A stretch of 21,077 nt of DNA from a virus. The stretch is from IMG/VR virus record IMGVR_UViG_3300040781_000156, positions 1-21,077 of that record; one strand, given 5' to 3'. How positions within the stretch are numbered: position 1 is the stretch's first letter; every line of letters begins with the position of its first letter. The notes beneath the pieces are model-generated. The model saw only the letters and a list, made by a program, of their open reading frames with translations, was not told the origin of the DNA and did not search any database. A program made the translations under genes and the position numbers. Of the stretch, positions 6,174-16,150 are shown in pieces.

Positions 6174-6756
6174 TGTTATTGATCTCTGGTTGTTTAGCAA
6201 GCCACAGGCAAACATTTGCCAGGGTATTTTCGTTCAACTTGTCATCAGTTATTACGTAGTCGGGGACGATACCTGTTTCGCTGAATTGTTGTTTCAGATC
6301 GTCCTGAGCGAGTCGTTCAACGATCATCTCATTTGTGTCACCACGTGCAATCATATTTTGTATCAGACGTTCTTCGGAAATGTCAAAATATACAAACATA
6401 GTTCGGATGTTGTAAAACATAGCATCCAACGAATACTTAAATGCTTTGGCTGACGATGGGGTGACAACCAATGTTACAATGTTGTCAGTAGTGGTATATT
6501 CACTAGCAGATGAACCATACAAATTGCCACCAAACTCAGTTGTCTGTACCAACTCTTGTCGTGATTGCAATTCACGGAAACGTTCCACCGTAACGAAGTG
6601 GTAATCAACACCATCCTTCTCACCTTCACGAGCCGGCCTGGTTGTTGCTGATATAGCTTTGTGAACCCCTTCGTGTTCACATAATCCCTTTTCTAGTGTG
6701 CTTTTGCCACAACCTGACGGTCCCATCAACATCAATACTATTTTATCCTTTATCAT
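6166..6756 (-). CDS. gmk: Guanylate kinase, 196 aa
   Basis: Phosphorylates GMP and dGMP to the diphosphate using ATP, feeding nucleotide synthesis. The P-loop GPSGCGKS is at residues 12-19. The GMP-binding signature TTRPAREGEKDGVDYHFV is at 38-55, followed by YG at 80-81 where the family has its Y-G-T/S loop. The length (196) is near the usual size of bacterial guanylate kinase (about 205). The start overlaps the gp44 stop as ATGA, so translation is coupled. T4 itself uses a different monophosphate kinase (gp1), so a cellular-type guanylate kinase between the clamp-loader genes is a departure from the T4 layout. Confidence 0.9.
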   Translation of the reverse strand: MIKDKIVLMLMGPSGCGKSTLEKGLCEHEGVHKAISATTRPAREGEKDGVDYHFVTVERFRELQSRQELVQTTEFGGNLYGSSASEYTTTDNIVTLVVTPSSAKAFKYSLDAMFYNIRTMFVYFDISEERLIQNMIARGDTNEMIVERLAQDDLKQQFSETGIVPDYVITDDKLNENTLANVCLWLAKQPEINNNG

Positions 6757-7679
6757 ACCATACCCAATTGTATAAACATAGAGGCCGCGTTGATTTCGGG
6801 ATCAGCAACTAATGAGTGTTTGTATAGATGTTCAGCGATGATCACCATTCCGTCTTCCCACTTAGACTGATCTTGAAACTTTGGTGCTTTGTCCAGGTTC
6901 TCATACAAGAATCGATAGACGTCTTCCCACTCCTCTGCTGCGACATTACCACAAGCTAACATTCTAGCTTGTTGCCAGTTGTCTGCATTTAATGCATCCA
7001 GTAAAGCGAATTTGTAATCACTATCTTCACCATTTTGTGAAATATCACCAAGTACACCATCGTTGGTATTCTGTTGCAGGAGGTTGACGATCTTACGTAT
7101 ATCTGGATACCCAACTGCAACATACTTGTCAAGTAGATCCAAATCAAATTTGACACCTTCAGCAAGAAGAATCTTGCACGCATATTCAGTAATATCATCT
7201 TGGTTGGATGCTTTGAATCTGAAGTGTTGACAACGCGACTTGATCGCTGGAATGATTTTATTCTCGTAGTTGCAAGTTAAGATGAAACGAACCTGCTCCG
7301 AATACTCTTCCATTAGACGACGCAAGACTGCTTGACCGTTTGGTGTGATGTAATCAGCTTCTTCCAAGTTTACTATCTTGAAATCACCCATTGCAAACGT
7401 CATGACGAAGTTCTTAATCTTGTCTCGCATTACATCAACGGAGTTTTCATCGGATGCGTTGATCACCATAATGTCCATTGGATCAATATCCAGATGCGAC
7501 ATTAGTATTTTAGCTATTGATGTCTTTCCTGACCCTTGAACCCCTGATAACAACAGGTGCGGAATGGTCTGGTCTGATATGAACCGTTCAAATGCGTTCT
7601 TCTGCTTGTCGTCGTGAAATACATATTCGCTTAATTCGGTTGGGCGGTACGCTTCGACCCAAAGTGCGTGTGTGCTCAT
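6753..7679 (-). CDS. 44: Clamp loader large subunit (AAA+ ATPase gp44), 308 aa
   Basis: An ATPase of the replication clamp loader. The N-terminus has the family start W-x-E-x-YRP (residues 7-13). Walker A is GVQGSGKT (46-53). Walker B reads KIVNLEEAD (101-109), with Asn-Leu-Glu-Glu in place of the more usual Asp-Glu pair. The SRC arginine-finger motif is at 148-150 (IKSRCQHF). A helical C-terminal domain follows. The length is close to T4 gp44 (319). It is the first gene after a promoter-like sequence and heads the cluster gp44, kinase, small protein, probable gp62 and zinc-finger protein. Confidence 0.93.
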   Translation of the reverse strand: MSTHALWVEAYRPTELSEYVFHDDKQKNAFERFISDQTIPHLLLSGVQGSGKTSIAKILMSHLDIDPMDIMVINASDENSVDVMRDKIKNFVMTFAMGDFKIVNLEEADYITPNGQAVLRRLMEEYSEQVRFILTCNYENKIIPAIKSRCQHFRFKASNQDDITEYACKILLAEGVKFDLDLLDKYVAVGYPDIRKIVNLLQQNTNDGVLGDISQNGEDSDYKFALLDALNADNWQQARMLACGNVAAEEWEDVYRFLYENLDKAPKFQDQSKWEDGMVIIAEHLYKHSLVADPEINAASMFIQLGMV

Positions 7680-8234: not shown

Positions 8235-8564
8235 TTATGTTTTTCGTCGTGCTTTTTGTTGTGTTGTTTTTGGAGCGGTTTTGTTTGGTTCTTCAACATC
8301 TTCTACTGGGTCGATAAATTCAACGTCTGCTTGATTCACATCAGGAGACCGAGGCTCAACAGATGTTGGCTTCGCTGGTGAAGGCTTAACGGCAGTTGAC
8401 AGAGGCGTTTTCTTCATGTTCCGCATCCGGCGTCGAAGTCTAGCGTCAATGTGATGTTGGCGTGCAGCCACATCAGTTGGTGCAGGCTGTGAACCAATAG
8501 ATTCTTTAATTTTCATCAGATCGAAGTCGACAACTGTGCCTCTAGCACTGCGTATCTTTTTCAT
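8235..8564 (-). CDS. Conserved small basic phage protein, 109 aa
   Basis: A GGGA ribosome site precedes the ATG. The N-terminus KKIRSARGTVVDFDLMKIKESI resembles a short conserved protein I recall from T4-like phages, where it has no known function. After it comes a basic RLRRRMRNMKK stretch (about 43-53), then a Pro/Ala/Lys/Glu-rich disordered tail ending in a Lys/Arg cluster. The basic patches suggest nucleic-acid or protein binding. It sits between the DnaE-like fragment and the co-chaperonin. Confidence 0.7.
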   Translation of the reverse strand: MKKIRSARGTVVDFDLMKIKESIGSQPAPTDVAARQHHIDARLRRRMRNMKKTPLSTAVKPSPAKPTSVEPRSPDVNQADVEFIDPVEDVEEPNKTAPKTTQQKARRKT

Positions 8565-8578
8565 ATTACATTCCCATG

Positions 8579-9130
8579 TTAAGTGCTGCGCAAAAATTCT
8601 GTTATGTCCAGTTCATATTTCACACTATCAATATCATGAACACCAATTAAGTACAAGACATACGACGACACACTGCTTCCACGTCCAACACCCCACATCA
8701 CATTGTTGTGGTTAAGAGTATTTATAACATAAATGAGGACCCTTAAAACATCCATCAACCCACACTTACGATACAAAGACAATTCGTCTACGACCCGTTT
8801 ACATCTGTGTTCAGCGTCGCTGGCATCTGGATCAAAATTGGTGTCAGACAGTAAGTATTCCAGAACGTCCAGCTCCCGATATTCATCAGGAATGTTCCAT
8901 TCGTGAGAAAGGGGTCGCGTTTCGGTTTTAATTCCAATCTTCTTACTATCTGTCACAAAAGAGTTATACTGTCGGATTTCGTCCGTTATTTCATCAACAA
9001 ATAACCCCTCAATGGGCAGCCCGCCAATCAATGAGTCAACAATCTCTTTGGAGTTGATGGTTGAATCACCATCAAACCAGAGTGTCCTGTCTTTCAGTTT
9101 AACCGAAAGTTGAGGTTGAGTATTCGCCAT
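8579..9130 (-). CDS. Truncated DnaE-like protein (Pol III alpha palm fragment), 183 aa
   Basis: Residues about 105-181 follow the family C DNA polymerase (DnaE) sequence leading into the palm: a helix RVVDELSLYRKCGLMDVL, then NVMWGVGRGSSVSSYVLYLIGVHDIDSVKYELDITEFL. The family has GPGRGSxxGSLVAYxLxITDxDPLxFxLLFERFL here. The GRGS motif of the pol-beta-like nucleotidyltransferase fold is intact. The protein stops just before the place where DnaE has its catalytic PDxDxDF, so it should not polymerise DNA. No frame nearby supplies the missing part. The start overlaps the preceding gene by 32 bases and has no clear ribosome site. The role is unknown. Confidence 0.72.
   Translation of the reverse strand: MANTQPQLSVKLKDRTLWFDGDSTINSKEIVDSLIGGLPIEGLFVDEITDEIRQYNSFVTDSKKIGIKTETRPLSHEWNIPDEYRELDVLEYLLSDTNFDPDASDAEHRCKRVVDELSLYRKCGLMDVLRVLIYVINTLNHNNVMWGVGRGSSVSSYVLYLIGVHDIDSVKYELDITEFLRST
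8719..8726 (-). promoter_or_regulatory. Internal late-type box (TATAAATA) inside the DnaE-like gene
   Basis: A perfect TATAAATAC on the minus strand, about 155 bases before the start of the 109-aa gene. It could drive late transcription of that gene and the co-chaperonin, but it also encodes ordinary residues (VINT) and may be chance. Confidence 0.28.
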
Positions 9131-9521
9131 CGATATCAGGTGTCTTTAAAACCTTCTCACCATTCTGTCCTGTTTTCACCTGCATACCCATGTTTTTGGC
9201 GTTATCACCTAGCTCAACACTGCCCATGGGTATTGAGCTAGGTGGTAGCGGCATTGGTGGAATACCTGCTGGTAGGTTTGATGGTTGTTGACTTGGTTGA
9301 TTGGTGTTTTGTGGTTGATTAAAAGTAGGTACGTGTTGAACGACCTGTTGGATGACAGGATCATCTGATACTATACTCTTAATCTTCGTTCGAATCAACT
9401 TCCATTGTGGCGCTGTTGGAACCCAGTCCTTTTCTTGCAATTCTTCAACACCCTCTAACCAAGCGGTGAACTCCGCCAAGGTTACTGTCTTTTTCGTTCT
9501 TGGTGTTCTTTTTCTAGCCAT
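9099..9521 (-). CDS. Hypothetical protein with Pro/Gln-rich tail, 140 aa
   Basis: I choose the ATG at 9519-9521 (MARKRTPRTKK) because GGAG lies 6 bases upstream. An ATG at 9531-9533 overlapping the previous stop is the alternative and would add MENN. The folded part (about 13-55) has LAEFTAWLEGVEELQ and WVPTAPQWKLIRTKIKSI, a pattern of small phage helical modules. Residues 60-105 are rich in Pro, Gln and Asn and likely disordered. The basic N-terminus suggests contact with nucleic acid. I do not recognise a function. Confidence 0.7.
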   Translation of the reverse strand: MARKRTPRTKKTVTLAEFTAWLEGVEELQEKDWVPTAPQWKLIRTKIKSIVSDDPVIQQVVQHVPTFNQPQNTNQPSQQPSNLPAGIPPMPLPPSSIPMGSVELGDNAKNMGMQVKTGQNGEKVLKTPDIDGEYSTSTFG

Positions 9522-9532
9522 ATTGTTCTCCA

Positions 9533-10018
9533 TCAGACGAAGTCGCCAGCGACTTTCCCCTTGAGATACTTATTGTATGCGTCGGACGGGCTCACATTGA
9601 TCCACGCTTCCGGCGATATTGGATGACACAACATCTGGTTCTTGCTCATAGATGGTGCAACATTCGCGTAGTTCGGGTGGTAGTTTGTTGCTGATACTGA
9701 CACTGCTTCTACCATATTGTAGTTTGGTCCATACACCATCGCCTTAAACTCCTTACCAGCTACCGAGGCAATATCAACGACATCAAGTTGCATCGTTTCT
9801 TCATCACATACCAATATACTCCAACTAGCAGGAAGGGCAAAGTGAAAACCATCGACTTGCAATTCGATGGTTGGACTAACTATCTCCTCCAACACAAACA
9901 AATTAGTCAGAGTAAAATCATCCATTGTCATATCCAACACCCAGAACATTTCAGCGATAGTGGGGGTTGTAATACTGTCAAGTATTGTTGGTGTTGAGTT
10001 TTCGTCAAATATCATCAT
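9533..10018 (-). CDS. Hypothetical protein, 161 aa
   Basis: The ATG at 10016-10018 has a GGAG ribosome site 10 bases upstream and lies 23 bases after the uvsW stop. The first 40 residues are acidic. The rest appears beta-rich, with FHFALPASWSILVCDEET near residue 58 and YHPNYANVAPSMSKNQMLCHPISPEAWINV near residue 113, blocks dense enough to look conserved. There is no signal peptide or membrane segment. Its stop overlaps the longer start option of the next gene, so both are probably one operon with uvsW. Function unknown. Confidence 0.72.
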   Translation of the reverse strand: MMIFDENSTPTILDSITTPTIAEMFWVLDMTMDDFTLTNLFVLEEIVSPTIELQVDGFHFALPASWSILVCDEETMQLDVVDIASVAGKEFKAMVYGPNYNMVEAVSVSATNYHPNYANVAPSMSKNQMLCHPISPEAWINVSPSDAYNKYLKGKVAGDFV

Positions 10019-10041: not shown

Positions 10042-12603
10042 TTATAGTACATCCGGTGTGGAGTAGTCAACAGATTTCTTGGTGTGAGGGTACTTTGCTT
10101 CCTTATAAAACTTCACACGCTCTGCCATATGCTTACGACCATACTTCAAATCGGAACAAATATCAGTAACATCCACATGATCCTTGTCCGGAGCTTTTCT
10201 CAGTCCACGACCAATCGTCTGTATGACCCTGATGAATGATTTACCAACATCAATGAACATCATGTTGTATATGCGCTTGATATTCAAACCTGTAGAAGCG
10301 ATCTGTACTGTAGCAATAACGACAAGGTTGTCATTCTCCTTGAATAGCTCATACACTTCCTTCCGTGCTTTCATCTTGTCAGCACCCGACAGAAACATAG
10401 CGCCTTCAACATAACCCGTTAGCTTCTTACCAAAGCGAACACCATCAACCAAGCATAATACATTGCCCTTACCTTCATCACGCTTTTTTTCAATGTGACG
10501 TGCGATGTATTTCAAGCGTGCATCATCGGATTGGTTGTATTGCTTTTCGGAAGTATAGTCCGGAAAATATTCGTCCTTGAACTTTCTGTATGTTACTGGT
10601 TTGCCGATTGTGTTTGATTTATATTCTTCATAGTCTTCCTTGAAGTTAGCTTCCAGTTGTAGTACTTCAATGTGAAGCGATGCGAGATAATCTTCATCTA
10701 TAAGTTCGTGAGCAGGCTTGGTATATTGTACGGAGCCAACAGCTATGCGAACAGCCATAGCATCAGTTTCAGCTTTTGGTAGAGTACCTGTTACACCAAA
10801 ACGATACGATATATTCTTGCCATATTCATTCAACAACTTTGTCAATATCTGTCCTTTCAACCCATGACACTCATCGACGATGATCATATCAAAGTCTTGA
10901 ATAATTGTTGGGTTGTTTTGTAGAGCTTGCCACGTTGATACGATATGTGTGTGGTTCAGATCCTTTACTTCACCACTATATTGTCCAACATCAACGCCGA
11001 AGAAAATGTACTCCTCGACAGTCTGATCCGTCAGGTTTTTATCAGGTACGATGATTATTGATTTCATGTTGAACTCACCATACACGAGAGCCAATGCTGC
11101 TGTCATACTGGTGTTGTGTGTGACGATATAATCGTCAGTTATGTACAAGTGGTCAGGGTGATCTATCATAATGCATTGCATTGGTTCATCTTCGATGCGA
11201 ACAACCGATTTCACACGTCGCATTAACTCAACGCGCCCATTTGCGTGGATTCCACAACGCTCGAGCTTGCGTGTGAGTTTAAACAACATTCGAGTGTCGG
11301 GGAATCCCACGATACAGTCATATGCTAGCCTAGCATTTTCTCTCGTGCGAATGTTGCATGTTCCACCCAGAGACCATATTATTTGTTGGACTTGAGTGGC
11401 TAGAATTAAACTGGTGGTCGAGTATGATACTGAACCGTTTGTTCCGACTGTACCGTCAGAATCAAACAAACCTCTGATCAATTCAAACCGTTGCTCTACC
11501 GTCGAGTTTATATATTTGCTCGGGATTGCTTTTTGATATGAGAGTGTTCCGTGCACTCCAAGGTCCTCCAAAATATTGACGAGAGGGTTTTTGTTGTTAT
11601 TTTGTGCCTGTTGGTCTTTTACAATTCTGTAATCACACCCATACCCACTAAACTTTGTTTTCAACTTCAGAGCTTGTAGAGCTGGTTGTATATTATCCAA
11701 CACTTCAACATCGGCAGTGGAAATCATAGGGGTTGCTTGTCTCAAACAACCATCGCCAATCAACACCCCAAGCAAATATGGATCAAGCGGGAGTCGTTCT
11801 TCAGGACCCAAACTCTCAACGGGTTGTACCAACGGAATGCTGATGTTGCCAGGCACGTGTTGTCCGCTAGCCTTTAGCTCCAAAAAATCAGCCATATACT
11901 GTGTATCAACAACATCACTTATAGTGTTAGCTCTGTACGTGAATTCGGGACGTTTGACTTTCCACAAATGTTCCTTTCCAGCAACGGTTGACGAACCGTC
12001 GTGGAAAGTGACACGATATGCTTCTTTTGACGCTTGTGGAAAGATTCCCGTGATGTCAGCTACTGTACCATCTGGGCATATAACAACGTGATTCGTTGTG
12101 ATGTCTCCCATACGGACCCAACCATCGGTTGTAAGAATTAGCGAGTTGAGTGATTGCATTTTACCTCCACCCGTACCACAAATACCAATACCACCGGCAT
12201 TATCAATCAGAGCGTTTGTCATACCAACTTGGTAATTACGCATGATCCAATCTTCACCCGTTTCTGGATCTTTTACGCCACGATCAGCAAAGAATCGCTC
12301 TGTAATGGGTTCTGGAAACACAGCTTCACCTTCGCGACGATCATCAATTTCAATATCATACCGAAGACCTATCAATCGTGGAATGATATCGTCAAGAAGG
12401 TTTACGTGTGTCTTTCCCGTCTTGTGGAAGAAGCGTATCTTACCATCCCACGAACCCAATTTGAATTTTGGATTGAAAAAGTGGTTCGCAGCGAACATAC
12501 CATATTCTTCATAGAAGTATAAGATGTGGTCATCTTTGAGGTTGGTGATGAAACAATTTACTTCGTCCTGTATGACGATCTTACATTTGCGTTGTTTTGT
12601 CAC
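10042..12603 (-). CDS. uvsW: UvsW DNA/RNA helicase, precursor interrupted by an intein (853 aa; 504 aa after splicing)
   Basis: UvsW is a superfamily 2 helicase that unwinds branched DNA and R-loops in T4-like phages. The N-terminal domain has FNPKFKLGSWDGKIRFF, matching T4 FNPRFRYGNWDGRIRLL. The Walker A GTGGGK (143-148) is split from its Thr by an intein. Motif II is DECH (577-580). Motif III is TGT, and motif VI is QTIGRGLR. I take the GTG at 12601-12603 as the start: the frame extends upstream to a TTG at 12696, but the T4 homology begins here and the GTG overlaps the stop of a small gene (GTGA). The spliced length of 504 equals T4 UvsW almost exactly (503), supporting both the start and the intein ends. 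Confidence 0.9.
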   Translation of the reverse strand: MTKQRKCKIVIQDEVNCFITNLKDDHILYFYEEYGMFAANHFFNPKFKLGSWDGKIRFFHKTGKTHVNLLDDIIPRLIGLRYDIEIDDRREGEAVFPEPITERFFADRGVKDPETGEDWIMRNYQVGMTNALIDNAGGIGICGTGGGKMQSLNSLILTTDGWVRMGDITTNHVVICPDGTVADITGIFPQASKEAYRVTFHDGSSTVAGKEHLWKVKRPEFTYRANTISDVVDTQYMADFLELKASGQHVPGNISIPLVQPVESLGPEERLPLDPYLLGVLIGDGCLRQATPMISTADVEVLDNIQPALQALKLKTKFSGYGCDYRIVKDQQAQNNNKNPLVNILEDLGVHGTLSYQKAIPSKYINSTVEQRFELIRGLFDSDGTVGTNGSVSYSTTSLILATQVQQIIWSLGGTCNIRTRENARLAYDCIVGFPDTRMLFKLTRKLERCGIHANGRVELMRRVKSVVRIEDEPMQCIMIDHPDHLYITDDYIVTHNTSMTAALALVYGEFNMKSIIIVPDKNLTDQTVEEYIFFGVDVGQYSGEVKDLNHTHIVSTWQALQNNPTIIQDFDMIIVDECHGLKGQILTKLLNEYGKNISYRFGVTGTLPKAETDAMAVRIAVGSVQYTKPAHELIDEDYLASLHIEVLQLEANFKEDYEEYKSNTIGKPVTYRKFKDEYFPDYTSEKQYNQSDDARLKYIARHIEKKRDEGKGNVLCLVDGVRFGKKLTGYVEGAMFLSGADKMKARKEVYELFKENDNLVVIATVQIASTGLNIKRIYNMMFIDVGKSFIRVIQTIGRGLRKAPDKDHVDVTDICSDLKYGRKHMAERVKFYKEAKYPHTKKSVDYSTPDVL
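11113..12159 (-). mobile_element. Intein with LAGLIDADG homing endonuclease, class 3 signature, in the UvsW P-loop
   Basis: A 349-residue in-frame insertion between the Lys and Thr of the UvsW Walker A motif. Block A reads MQSLNSLILTTDGW, with Met where the usual Cys or Ser 1 stands. Block B ends KEHLW, with His64 at B:10 and Trp66 at B:12 (intein numbering). The endonuclease has two LAGLIDADG motifs, LLGVLIGDG (Asp136) and LIRGLFDSDG (Asp235). Block F holds Cys329 at F:4, and block G reads IVTHN with Thr347 at G:5, His348 and Asn349, then +1 Thr. A missing residue-1 nucleophile with Trp B:12, Cys F:4 and Thr G:5 is the W-C-T triplet that defines class 3 inteins. The P-loop is a common intein site. 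Confidence 0.92.
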
Positions 12604-12680
12604 TGGGATAGTGCCGCCCAGCAAGCTGCTATTATTAGCACAACAACTATGATTGCTAATATTTGTCCAAATATGATCAT
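12600..12680 (-). CDS. Single-pass membrane peptide, 26 aa
   Basis: The ATG at 12678-12680 overlaps the uvsY stop (ATGA), and the TGA stop at 12600-12602 overlaps the uvsW GTG start (GTGA). A GAGG ribosome site lies about 10 bases before the ATG. The peptide runs MIIFGQILAIIVVVLI and ends IAACWAALSQ: nearly all hydrophobic, one membrane helix, no charged residue. The double stop-start overlap fills exactly the 73 bases between uvsY and uvsW, which argues for a real coupled gene. The function is unknown; a small membrane peptide or a leader that couples uvsW translation are both possible. Confidence 0.6.
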   Translation of the reverse strand: MIIFGQILAIIVVVLIIAACWAALSQ

Positions 12681-13144
12681 AGAATATTGTCCTCAACCTG
12701 TGCTACGATTGCCCTCGTAATGTTGTTAAGGGCGTACCCTCGTTGTCTGAACGCATCAACAAGACTCTCATATTGTCCATACATTTCCTCAACCTCAATC
12801 AGATACCCACGCATTCTAATATAGGCATCCTCGTTGGCAATGTATTTTAATATCTCACGCTCGCCAAGTTCTCTGGAATGCTTTTCTTTGAAGTTGCGAA
12901 ATAGCTTTCCTTCCACGCGCTTCACTTCACCCTCGAAGTGCTTAACGAGTGATTTTACTTCGATTCGTTTTTGGTCATAATAGCTCTGCCATATAGGATT
13001 CTCCATGTTGGCTTCCTTTATGGTTTTACCTTTGAACCGCAGGTGTTCTTCAGCTTCTTTCAAATACCCTTCGTACTCATCTAACAAGTCTGGTAGGTGT
13101 GCGTATTGGTTGTCTGCTGAACCAGCGTCGAATATTCTACTCAA
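12677..13144 (-). CDS. uvsY: UvsY recombination mediator, 155 aa
   Basis: UvsY helps UvsX displace gp32 and assemble on single-stranded DNA. The protein is an alpha-helical, highly charged chain. Its C-terminal block YGQYESLVDAFRQRGYALNNI parallels T4 UvsY WGILLDFCSGALDAIKSRGF followed by AIKHI. The middle has the long Lys/Glu helices typical of the family. It is slightly longer than T4 UvsY (137). The position directly before uvsW is the reverse of the T4 order but keeps the pair together. The start overlaps the preceding gene as ATGA. Confidence 0.82.
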   Translation of the reverse strand: MSRIFDAGSADNQYAHLPDLLDEYEGYLKEAEEHLRFKGKTIKEANMENPIWQSYYDQKRIEVKSLVKHFEGEVKRVEGKLFRNFKEKHSRELGEREILKYIANEDAYIRMRGYLIEVEEMYGQYESLVDAFRQRGYALNNITRAIVAQVEDNIL

Positions 13145-13626: not shown

Positions 13627-14678
13627 TAAACTCTCCAGATTGAATCTTGCACTTCCATAAGGAGGTGGGCAGCAAATTTTGTGTTTGGCTTTTGTCGTAA
13701 TTGTGTTGTTGGTTGGAGCATTTTGATTTCCGCTTCCAGCTTCAATGCCACGTTCAATACTTCTTCGTATGTCATTGACCCATTACGAATGTTCAGAAGT
13801 TCAGCGGCATCAGGTCGTTTAACCAAAACCACACCATCGCGCATCGCTTCAACACCCATACGCAACAGCCGAACAAGATGCATAGCGTGTTTAGTATCAT
13901 ATCCATGAGCTTCTTCAAGAGCGGAACGCTTGACGTTTCTACTCTTCTTCCAATCCCAGTATTGTTTCCACTTATCACAAGCTAGTCTCCACTCTTCCCT
14001 GTTGAATTTGATAATCGCGAGAGGTGCTGGTAGTTGTGTTCGGTCAATGTTGTCAATATTATCGTTCAGTGATCCATCTTGTGGACGAATTGCTGATCTG
14101 TGACTCATAGGAACCACACCATATGTATCAGAACCATAAGGCACGAGCATTGCACCCTCATTAAAAAGTCTGATGCTGAATTTGCTCGGGAGAACCTTTT
14201 GATCACCAAACCATTGGATCAGAGAAACATAATCACACTGCTGTGGTTTGTCTTCTGGTTGTGGTTGGTTGATCCACTTATTGTGTCCTTTGATTCGTTT
14301 CAATTGAGACATAGCGTAGCCGCTTGTGGTGTAAGCGATTTTAGCTGATAACAACTCCTCACGGTGTTGGCGAAGCAGGTCGTAAGCTGGTGTACGGAAC
14401 GTGATGTCTGAATTGGCCGTCCATAGCAATTCAATAATATTAGGGTTGCAGTCAACAGCCAATTTCATGAAGTGGTTCAACTCGAAGTATTTAGTATCTT
14501 CGCCTTCACCAACATGTTCTCTGACAGGGAAGAAAGGTGTTCTGATTTGTACAGGGTCAGCACAAAATATTCCACGAATGTCAACATCCGATTCGGGCGT
14601 GTTTGTGCCATATGCTATCGACCCAGCGTACATCTCAACTAACTTGTTCATTTTACATTTCATATCAACACAATACAT
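13626..14678 (-). CDS. Predicted nucleotidyltransferase (pol-beta superfamily, COG3541-like), 350 aa
   Basis: Near the N-terminus the sequence AGSIAYGTNTPESDVDIRG gives the GS...SDxDxRG motif of minimal nucleotidyltransferases, with both metal-binding Asp residues present. The later HMKL-type and LIQWFG segments are as in the larger phage members of this group. The substrate is unknown; transfer of a nucleotide to a protein or RNA is typical of the fold. The ATG at 14676-14678 overlaps the upstream stop (TGATG). A shorter start, ATG at 14649-14651 (MNKLVEMYAGS), puts the GS motif at the usual distance from the N-terminus and is a serious alternative. Neither has a good ribosome site. Confidence 0.75.
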   Translation of the reverse strand: MYCVDMKCKMNKLVEMYAGSIAYGTNTPESDVDIRGIFCADPVQIRTPFFPVREHVGEGEDTKYFELNHFMKLAVDCNPNIIELLWTANSDITFRTPAYDLLRQHREELLSAKIAYTTSGYAMSQLKRIKGHNKWINQPQPEDKPQQCDYVSLIQWFGDQKVLPSKFSIRLFNEGAMLVPYGSDTYGVVPMSHRSAIRPQDGSLNDNIDNIDRTQLPAPLAIIKFNREEWRLACDKWKQYWDWKKSRNVKRSALEEAHGYDTKHAMHLVRLLRMGVEAMRDGVVLVKRPDAAELLNIRNGSMTYEEVLNVALKLEAEIKMLQPTTQLRQKPNTKFAAHLLMEVQDSIWRV

Positions 14679-16150
14679 CAACTATTGTGATTCGTCAACA
14701 CAAATTTCTTCTTACCACAATCCCATATGCGCAAAATGTTGTTGTTGTTGCAATTTTCGGTTTCAGTTAACATTGGATCATAGTTAGTTAACATGTTTGG
14801 CAGATTTTTATGTCTGTAGTTGAATTTATGCGTTCGTGTGTGCCCGTCTTTAGAATAATAATAGTCTGGTGGGATAGTAGCTTCAAGCTCCCAACCGTTG
14901 ATGTCATACAGACTACCCGTAGACCATCTACAATCAGCAAAAGATATTATTTTACTCCACTCGTGTGTTCGTTGAAAATGTTTTACTAACTTACTGAAGC
15001 CGCCAACCACGCGGGTGGATGTTGCGTATCTGTTTAGATAATGCTGACGTTGTTGGTGTATTAAGGTCATACACGCAACCAACTCGCCAGTGTAATACAA
15101 CCCAACGCTGATAGAACCTGGACCGTTACCCTGGATGTGATTTTTTTCGAAAAATTGTTTCTTTTCAGTTTGGGTGACGTCCCGTATCTCACACTGCCTA
15201 GCATACACAACCTGTGATTGGTCAAACCCGAGTGCATTTGTTAACTTGCGGCGAACCGCTTCCTCCCGTAACTTCCATTCATCCTCATATACAGTGAATA
15301 GTTGTATGTTTTTGTCAGCGGCGAGCAATAATTTGTTTTTGTGGTAGTTTCTATCCTTTCCCTTTTGCTCACTGTGCCAATATAAGCCACAATACTCTAT
15401 GGCTATATTGTGCGAAGGTATTAATATGTCTAGTTCGTGTCCGTTTAATACTACTCTATCCCCTGTTACGGTTGGCACCATTGTGTTGATAAAGTTGTTT
15501 AGTTCTTTCTCACCGGCAGATGCGGGATGACGGATGACCTTTACGTCAGCAGCTTTGCAATACTTGCCCAGTACGCCATCATTGATGCCCAATTCACTAC
15601 TGATTTGGGTTAATGGTTTTGCCAGCACATGGTGTTGATTAACCAGCCACGACCTGTCAGTTATGTTGTCGAGAATGTTAGCATTATACCGCGGGGGCTG
15701 AATTCTGTTTATATAATCCGTATTTAACACTCGGGTTCGTTTGGCACACTCCGGACAACCTGATTTTTTTGATATGTGATCTGTTGGTGTTTGTTCAAAA
15801 ATTCCGTGGTGTTTGCATATTATTTCAACTTTATCACTAGAAGCATTATTCACCGGTTTCCATAACGAATAGTCATATGTGTCACCGTGAACTTCTTCAG
15901 CTCGCTTTTTGTATTCTGTTACTGATATCCTCTTTTTAGCAGCTTTCAACAATTCTCCGCACTTTGGACAACCCGCTCCACGTAAGTGATTCGCCACACT
16001 CGTATGAAACAACCCGTGTGCATTGCATACAACAGGTATGTTGCGTTTGTGGTATCCTCCATCGTAGCAAACCCAACGGGAATAATCATATTTGTTGTCG
16101 TGGACGGCGTTTGCCCTGTCGATATAAGACTTAATACGTGCATCAAACAT
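14678..16150 (-). CDS. Free-standing Vsr-like homing endonuclease with zinc-ribbon repeats, 490 aa
   Basis: Two N-terminal repeats each have a Cys-His pair, HGxF and GCPxC (C42/H45/C61/C64 and C112/H115/C132/C135), resembling the DUF723-type zinc-binding repeat. Then a helix-turn-helix-like segment (about 173-205) leads to a nuclease core: SAGEKEL near 211, ELDILIPSHNIAIEYCGLYW from 239, His259 and HKNK at 270-273. This is the layout of the Vsr/EDxHD endonucleases found in phages. The C-terminal third (about 310-490), with GLYYTGELVACM and FADCRWSTGSLY, is a conserved extra domain I cannot name. The gene lies between the uvsX terminator and an otherwise coupled series, as expected of a mobile gene. 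Confidence 0.78.
   Translation of the reverse strand: MFDARIKSYIDRANAVHDNKYDYSRWVCYDGGYHKRNIPVVCNAHGLFHTSVANHLRGAGCPKCGELLKAAKKRISVTEYKKRAEEVHGDTYDYSLWKPVNNASSDKVEIICKHHGIFEQTPTDHISKKSGCPECAKRTRVLNTDYINRIQPPRYNANILDNITDRSWLVNQHHVLAKPLTQISSELGINDGVLGKYCKAADVKVIRHPASAGEKELNNFINTMVPTVTGDRVVLNGHELDILIPSHNIAIEYCGLYWHSEQKGKDRNYHKNKLLLAADKNIQLFTVYEDEWKLREEAVRRKLTNALGFDQSQVVYARQCEIRDVTQTEKKQFFEKNHIQGNGPGSISVGLYYTGELVACMTLIHQQRQHYLNRYATSTRVVGGFSKLVKHFQRTHEWSKIISFADCRWSTGSLYDINGWELEATIPPDYYYSKDGHTRTHKFNYRHKNLPNMLTNYDPMLTETENCNNNNILRIWDCGKKKFVLTNHNS

What the first reader, a model, noticed from the sequence alone, without database searches (positions are those of the whole stretch)
8579..9130. DnaE-like fragment that keeps GRGS but ends before the catalytic aspartates
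Seen: the C-terminal 75 or so residues follow the Pol III alpha palm entry, including VGRGSSVSSYVLYLIG and the D-x-D-S-x-K-Y-E-L segment, and the chain stops where DnaE has PDxDxDF. Known: those Asp residues bind the catalytic metals. Inference: a non-catalytic remnant reused by a T4-like phage, perhaps to bind a nucleotide, the clamp or host replication proteins. The reading frame is intact, which argues against decay.
Basis: partly seen in the sequence, partly recalled or inferred. Interest (0 to 1): 0.62.

Follow-up and report, generated by a model that had tools for sequence, protein, structure and literature searches.

The report
N-half of split phage Pol III
The gene is not a dead leftover: it is one half of a very small DNA polymerase that a group of giant phages encode as two separate proteins, with the catalytic half in a distant gene; this split enzyme was described from sequence in 2021, and I found no report that it has been tested biochemically.

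Summary
Window 8579-9130 (minus strand, 183 aa) matches the palm entry of Pol III alpha (DnaE) and stops just before PDxDxDF. All 91 relatives read, from diverse phages, stop at the same point and keep GxGRGS, so the truncation is old and under purifying selection. The missing part is not lost. The same genomes carry a second gene of about 190 aa, mostly annotated 'hypothetical', that begins at the catalytic strand (DxDxD) and holds the third aspartate and a reduced fingers region. 26 phages with both genes were compared; only three N-half contigs (126-158 kb) lacked the second. The fragment is therefore the nucleotide-binding half of a split, apparently thumbless Pol III alpha, already described by Iyer et al. 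2021 (PMC7824862) in 'group 2.2' jumbo phages. This contig is a new member. It is 21 kb and does not contain the second gene, so for this phage the partner is inferred. Added here: the exact split point, wider distribution (also a 141-kb phage), linked inheritance of the halves, and a conserved gene order (N-half, small VDxD protein, GroES-like).

The parts
8579..9130 (-). N-half of the split minimal Pol III alpha (183 aa)
   Evidence: PF07733 8.2e-10, PHROG_11127 2.9e-46, AlphaFold2 pLDDT 92, Foldseek to Pol III alpha
8675..8692 (-). GVGRGS loop, residues 147-152; G-x-G-R-G-S invariant in relatives
8579..8596 (-). conserved end of the chain (F-L-R-S-T-stop), just before where DnaE has PDxDxDF
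   Evidence: 91 of 91 relatives end 33-41 residues after the start of GRGS
8235..8564 (-). small neighbour protein, 109 aa, RSARGTVVDFDL motif; linked to the N-half in relatives; role unknown
   Evidence: the family's 121Q-like members are PHROG_14844
7911..8222 (-). GroES-like co-chaperonin, next gene of the conserved order
   Evidence: PHROG_3188 1.7e-5
6753..7679 (-). clamp loader subunit (T4 gp44-like)
   Evidence: PHROG_168 5.7e-76
9099..9533 (-). upstream gene (144 aa) overlapping the start of the N-half; conserved in the XacN1-like group only

Best explanation
The ORF is the N-terminal, nucleotide-binding half of a split, minimal family-C DNA polymerase (Pol III alpha). It supplies the GxGRGS loop and the first part of the palm. 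A second protein, from a distant gene, supplies the DxDxD strand, the third catalytic aspartate and a short fingers region. The two chains are inferred to assemble, without splicing, into one composite palm that binds Mg2+ and dNTP and adds nucleotides. The assembled enzyme lacks the PHP and clamp-binding domains and most or all of the thumb, so it is inferred to be a distributive, specialised polymerase (gap filling, primer extension or repair) working beside the phage's own family-B polymerase. Shown: both genes in relatives, their conserved catalytic residues, co-occurrence and linked inheritance. Inferred: assembly, catalysis, the role, and that this particular phage has the second gene.
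For: N-half homology and fold. Same stop in 91 of 91 loci. Second ORF starting at PDIDIDF, with the third Asp, fingers and KSHA motifs, in relatives. C-half in 24 of 27 records with an N-half, the exceptions being 126-158 kb contigs, and both halves in three further named phages. GxGRGS, DxDID and KxD invariant in 26 pairs; DxDxD in all 81 further C-halves. The two halves' distance matrices correlate. Purifying selection on both. Same conclusion reached independently by Iyer et al. 2021.
Against: The C-half gene is not in this 21-kb contig. The missing thumb could mean a different activity. Correlated trees are partly expected from shared phage ancestry.
Confidence: 0.87

Rival explanations
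1. One reading: a non-catalytic remnant of DnaE reused to bind a nucleotide, the clamp or host replication proteins.
For: The chain alone has no catalytic aspartates and all relatives stop at the same place.
Against: The missing part is a separate co-occurring gene with all three aspartates invariant. From family knowledge, the clamp, tau and epsilon contacts of DnaE lie outside this segment.
Confidence: 0.06
2. The two halves pair, but as a regulator or decoy for host or phage replication rather than as an active polymerase.
For: No thumb and a shortened fingers region; the phages already have a family-B polymerase.
Against: Invariant D-x-D-I-D, K-x-D and GxGRGS across 26 phages argue for metal and nucleotide chemistry being kept.
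Confidence: 0.15
3. The downstream small protein (RG-x-x-VDFD) supplies the missing catalytic strand in trans.
For: The spacing from R to the first D equals that in DnaE NPERVSMPDFD (by eye), and the gene follows the N-half in 92 of 92 loci.
Against: Its second acidic position is D, E, N, H or G in relatives; a read-through fusion model was of low confidence there; the real DxDxD is in another gene.
Confidence: 0.03

Closest known systems
Split minimal DNA polymerase III alpha of group 2.2 jumbo phages (Iyer et al. 2021, PMC7824862); PHROG_11127 (N-half) and PHROG_11778 (C-half)
   Same: Same N-half, same truncation, same companion family-B polymerase and replication genes in relatives
   Different: The published description covered jumbo phages; here the pair is also found in a 141-kb phage. 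In this contig only the N-half is seen.
Bacterial Pol III alpha (DnaE, E. coli 2HNH, Taq 3E0D)
   Same: Palm entry and GxGRGS loop in the N-half; PDxDxDF strand, third Asp and fingers motifs in the C-half
   Different: Two chains of about 180 and 190 aa instead of about 1200; no PHP, OB or tau/clamp-binding regions found and no room for a full thumb
Cyanobacterial DnaE split by a trans-splicing intein
   Same: DnaE encoded in two genes
   Different: No intein sequence on either half here; from general knowledge the cyanobacterial cut also lies at a different place in DnaE

Membership tests
Split minimal Pol III alpha of group 2.2 jumbo phages | standalone N-terminal NTP-binding palm half with GxGRGS, ending before PDxDxDF | tested here: met
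Split minimal Pol III alpha of group 2.2 jumbo phages | C-terminal Mg2+/template-binding half encoded by a distant gene of the same genome | tested here: inconclusive
   Present in 24 of 27 relatives' records and in three more named phages; not in this 21-kb contig, which is too short to decide
Split minimal Pol III alpha of group 2.2 jumbo phages | T4-like jumbo phage background with a family-B polymerase | tested here: inconclusive
   The window has UvsW, UvsY and gp44, and its gene order matches XacN1; a family-B polymerase is found in 10 of 10 relatives but its gene is not in this contig
Full-length bacterial DnaE | single chain with catalytic aspartates, PHP, fingers and C-terminal domains | tested here: not met
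   183 aa, stops before the aspartates
Intein-split DnaE | N-part ends in an intein-N segment and C-part begins with an intein-C segment | tested here: not met
   N-halves end 33-41 residues after the start of GRGS; C-half ORFs have only 1-37 residues before DxDxD counted from the preceding stop codon
Active DNA polymerase | template-dependent nucleotidyl transfer | not testable with these tools
   Needs purified proteins

The most novel reading that the evidence does not exclude
The N-half, the C-half and the strictly linked small VDxD protein (perhaps with the GroES-like neighbour) work together: a two-chain, thumbless family-C polymerase with a phage-specific third factor, acting beside the family-B enzyme.
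Probability: 0.25. Interest if true: 0.65.

Novelty: new member of a known kind. Interest (0 to 1): 0.4.

Why it matters
If the two halves form an active enzyme, it would be a very small family-C polymerase assembled from two proteins across its active site. It could serve as a stripped-down model of the bacterial replicase palm, and it would give these phages a second polymerase of unknown role. The idea was published in 2021; what is missing is a biochemical test. The conserved gene order found here points to candidate partners.

Tried and rejected
(1) Downstream gene as supplier of the catalytic strand: pursued because of RGTVVDFDL and the 92 of 92 synteny; dropped when its second acidic residue proved variable, the read-through fusion model was weak and the true DxDxD gene appeared. 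(2) Read-through or frameshift into a palm: the three frames after the stop, read in nine relatives, show only the small protein. (3) Split intein: no extension on either half. (4) Decay: dN/dS about 0.03-0.10 in close relatives. (5) A fused, unsplit minimal form: none among the N- and C-half loci read. (6) A nucleotide search with the neighbour gene found nothing. (7) A scan of bacterial and archaeal genomes for the C-half found one MAG contig, which may be phage.

Full report
OBSERVATION. Window 8579-9130, minus strand, encodes 183 aa ending EFLRST. Residues 107-181 match Pfam PF07733 (E=8.2e-10, profile 21-95 of 260) and the whole protein matches PHROG_11127 (2.9e-46). A profile search of the PDB hits only Pol III alpha at significant E-values. 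AlphaFold2 with 83 relatives gives pLDDT 92; Foldseek's top matches are all Pol III alpha, with probability 1.00 though modest E-values and TM-scores.

THE STOP IS CONSERVED. tblastn finds 85 phage records, large phages of the Rak2/121Q/GAP32/CBB, PA5oct, XacN1, Atu_ph07 and Vibrio 2.275 kinds. In the 91 loci read, every chain ends 33-41 residues after the start of GRGS, shortly after the conserved F of the EFL segment. The closest pairs have dN/dS about 0.03-0.10. The stop is therefore an old, selected boundary. Selection was measured in relatives, not in this contig.

WHERE THE REST OF THE PALM IS. In ten relatives (288-490 kb) PF07733 occurs once, but PF17657 (Pol III fingers) matches a small ORF in seven of them, above the curated cut-off in three. 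Those ORFs start at or just before the catalytic strand, e.g. MKLPDIDIDL, MDIDIDI, MKNIPDIDIDF, and contain the K-x-D third Asp, a KPxSxxELAxxxAxIRP segment and an FKKSHAxxYA segment, in the order found in DnaE. In Taq numbering the N-half's match ends at 454 and this second protein's match begins at 461: the cut falls in the loop before the metal-binding strand. The second protein matches PHROG_11778. In GenBank it is mostly 'hypothetical protein', although some records call it DNA polymerase.

CO-OCCURRENCE. The C-half was found in 24 of 27 records with an N-half; the three without are contigs of 126-158 kb. Stenotrophomonas RAS14, Sinorhizobium Phosso and the 141-kb Alishewanella Slicko01 also have both. 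Across 26 pairs, GxGRGS plus an Arg and a Glu in the N-half, and D-x-D-I-D, H, G, K-x-D-x-L, R-P, H and Y in the C-half, are invariant. All 81 additional C-halves carry DxDxD and none is fused to an N-half. Distance matrices of the two halves correlate (r=0.73 in 19 diverse phages, 0 of 2000 permutations as high) and the trees agree in their main groups. Part of that agreement is expected from shared phage ancestry.

THIS CONTIG. The C-half is not in the window, which is the whole 21-kb record and reaches 8.6 kb past the N-half. In relatives the C-half lies about 6 kb (G002), 15 kb (XacN1) or 31 kb (121Q) from the N-half, and about 182 kb away in Atu_ph07 (record coordinates). Its presence in this phage is inference.

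MECHANISM. The simplest reading is two chains forming one palm: the N-half binds the dNTP triphosphate through GxGRGS, and the C-half holds the two metals and the template. About 65 residues separate the DxD from the third Asp, against about 154 in E. coli DnaE (family knowledge), which leaves no room for a full thumb; the PHP, OB and tau/clamp parts were not found on either half. Such an enzyme would probably be distributive. In 121Q, Atu_ph07, Phosso and Slicko01 the C-half lies near primase or helicase genes, and the N-half usually lies near gp44, consistent with replication or repair. A family-B polymerase is also present in 10 of 10 relatives.

CONSERVED GENE ORDER. In 92 of 92 loci the N-half is followed on the same strand by a small protein (RG-x-x-VDxD; in most members outside the XacN1-like group also AVGN..VNARGD.LG.GG), and in 91 of 92 a GroES-like gene follows; the exception is a locus cut short by the end of its contig. 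gp44 usually comes next. Insertions of other genes occur without breaking the order. These loci were the best-scoring relatives, so the figure may be lower in more distant ones. The small protein's role is unknown.

PRIOR KNOWLEDGE. Iyer et al. 2021 (PMC7824862) describe, in group 2.2 jumbo phages, a minimal Pol III alpha split into an N-terminal NTP-binding and a C-terminal Mg2+/template-binding protein encoded by distant genes, and propose that the two reconstitute an enzyme. The CBB paper (PMC5259590) had noted the truncation; the Atu_ph07 paper (PMC6102473) lists its gp316. Searches for experimental follow-up found none in the held library. So this is a new member of a known kind.

Noticed in passing
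window 10042-12696 (minus), insertion about 11113-12159: The UvsW helicase ORF carries an intein-like insertion of about 349 aa inside its Walker A motif; removing it restores GTGGGKTSMTAAL. Its last residues are HN, but its first residue is Met rather than the usual Cys or Ser.
   Followed up: partly
window 8235-8564 and relatives L002-L097: A small protein family (RG-x-x-VDxD, often AVGN..VNARGD.LG.GG) lies directly downstream of the N-half, followed by a GroES-like gene, in 92 of 92 loci. Its function is unknown.
   Followed up: partly
L058, L067, L075, L078: A gene of about 620-630 aa starting MKNxYLIQxxDAYGPNKFLPL is inserted between the N-half and the small VDxD gene in several related phages; possibly B12/radical-SAM-like, judged by eye only.
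   Followed up: no
window 14678-16150 (minus): A 490-aa ORF with repeated zinc-finger-like CPxC segments and a C-terminal part that looks like a homing-type endonuclease, by eye; lies among recombination genes.
   Followed up: no
OQ508956.1 (L137, L142): Alishewanella phage Slicko01 (141 kb, below the usual jumbo size) carries divergent N- and C-halves about 11 kb apart on the same strand.
   Followed up: partly
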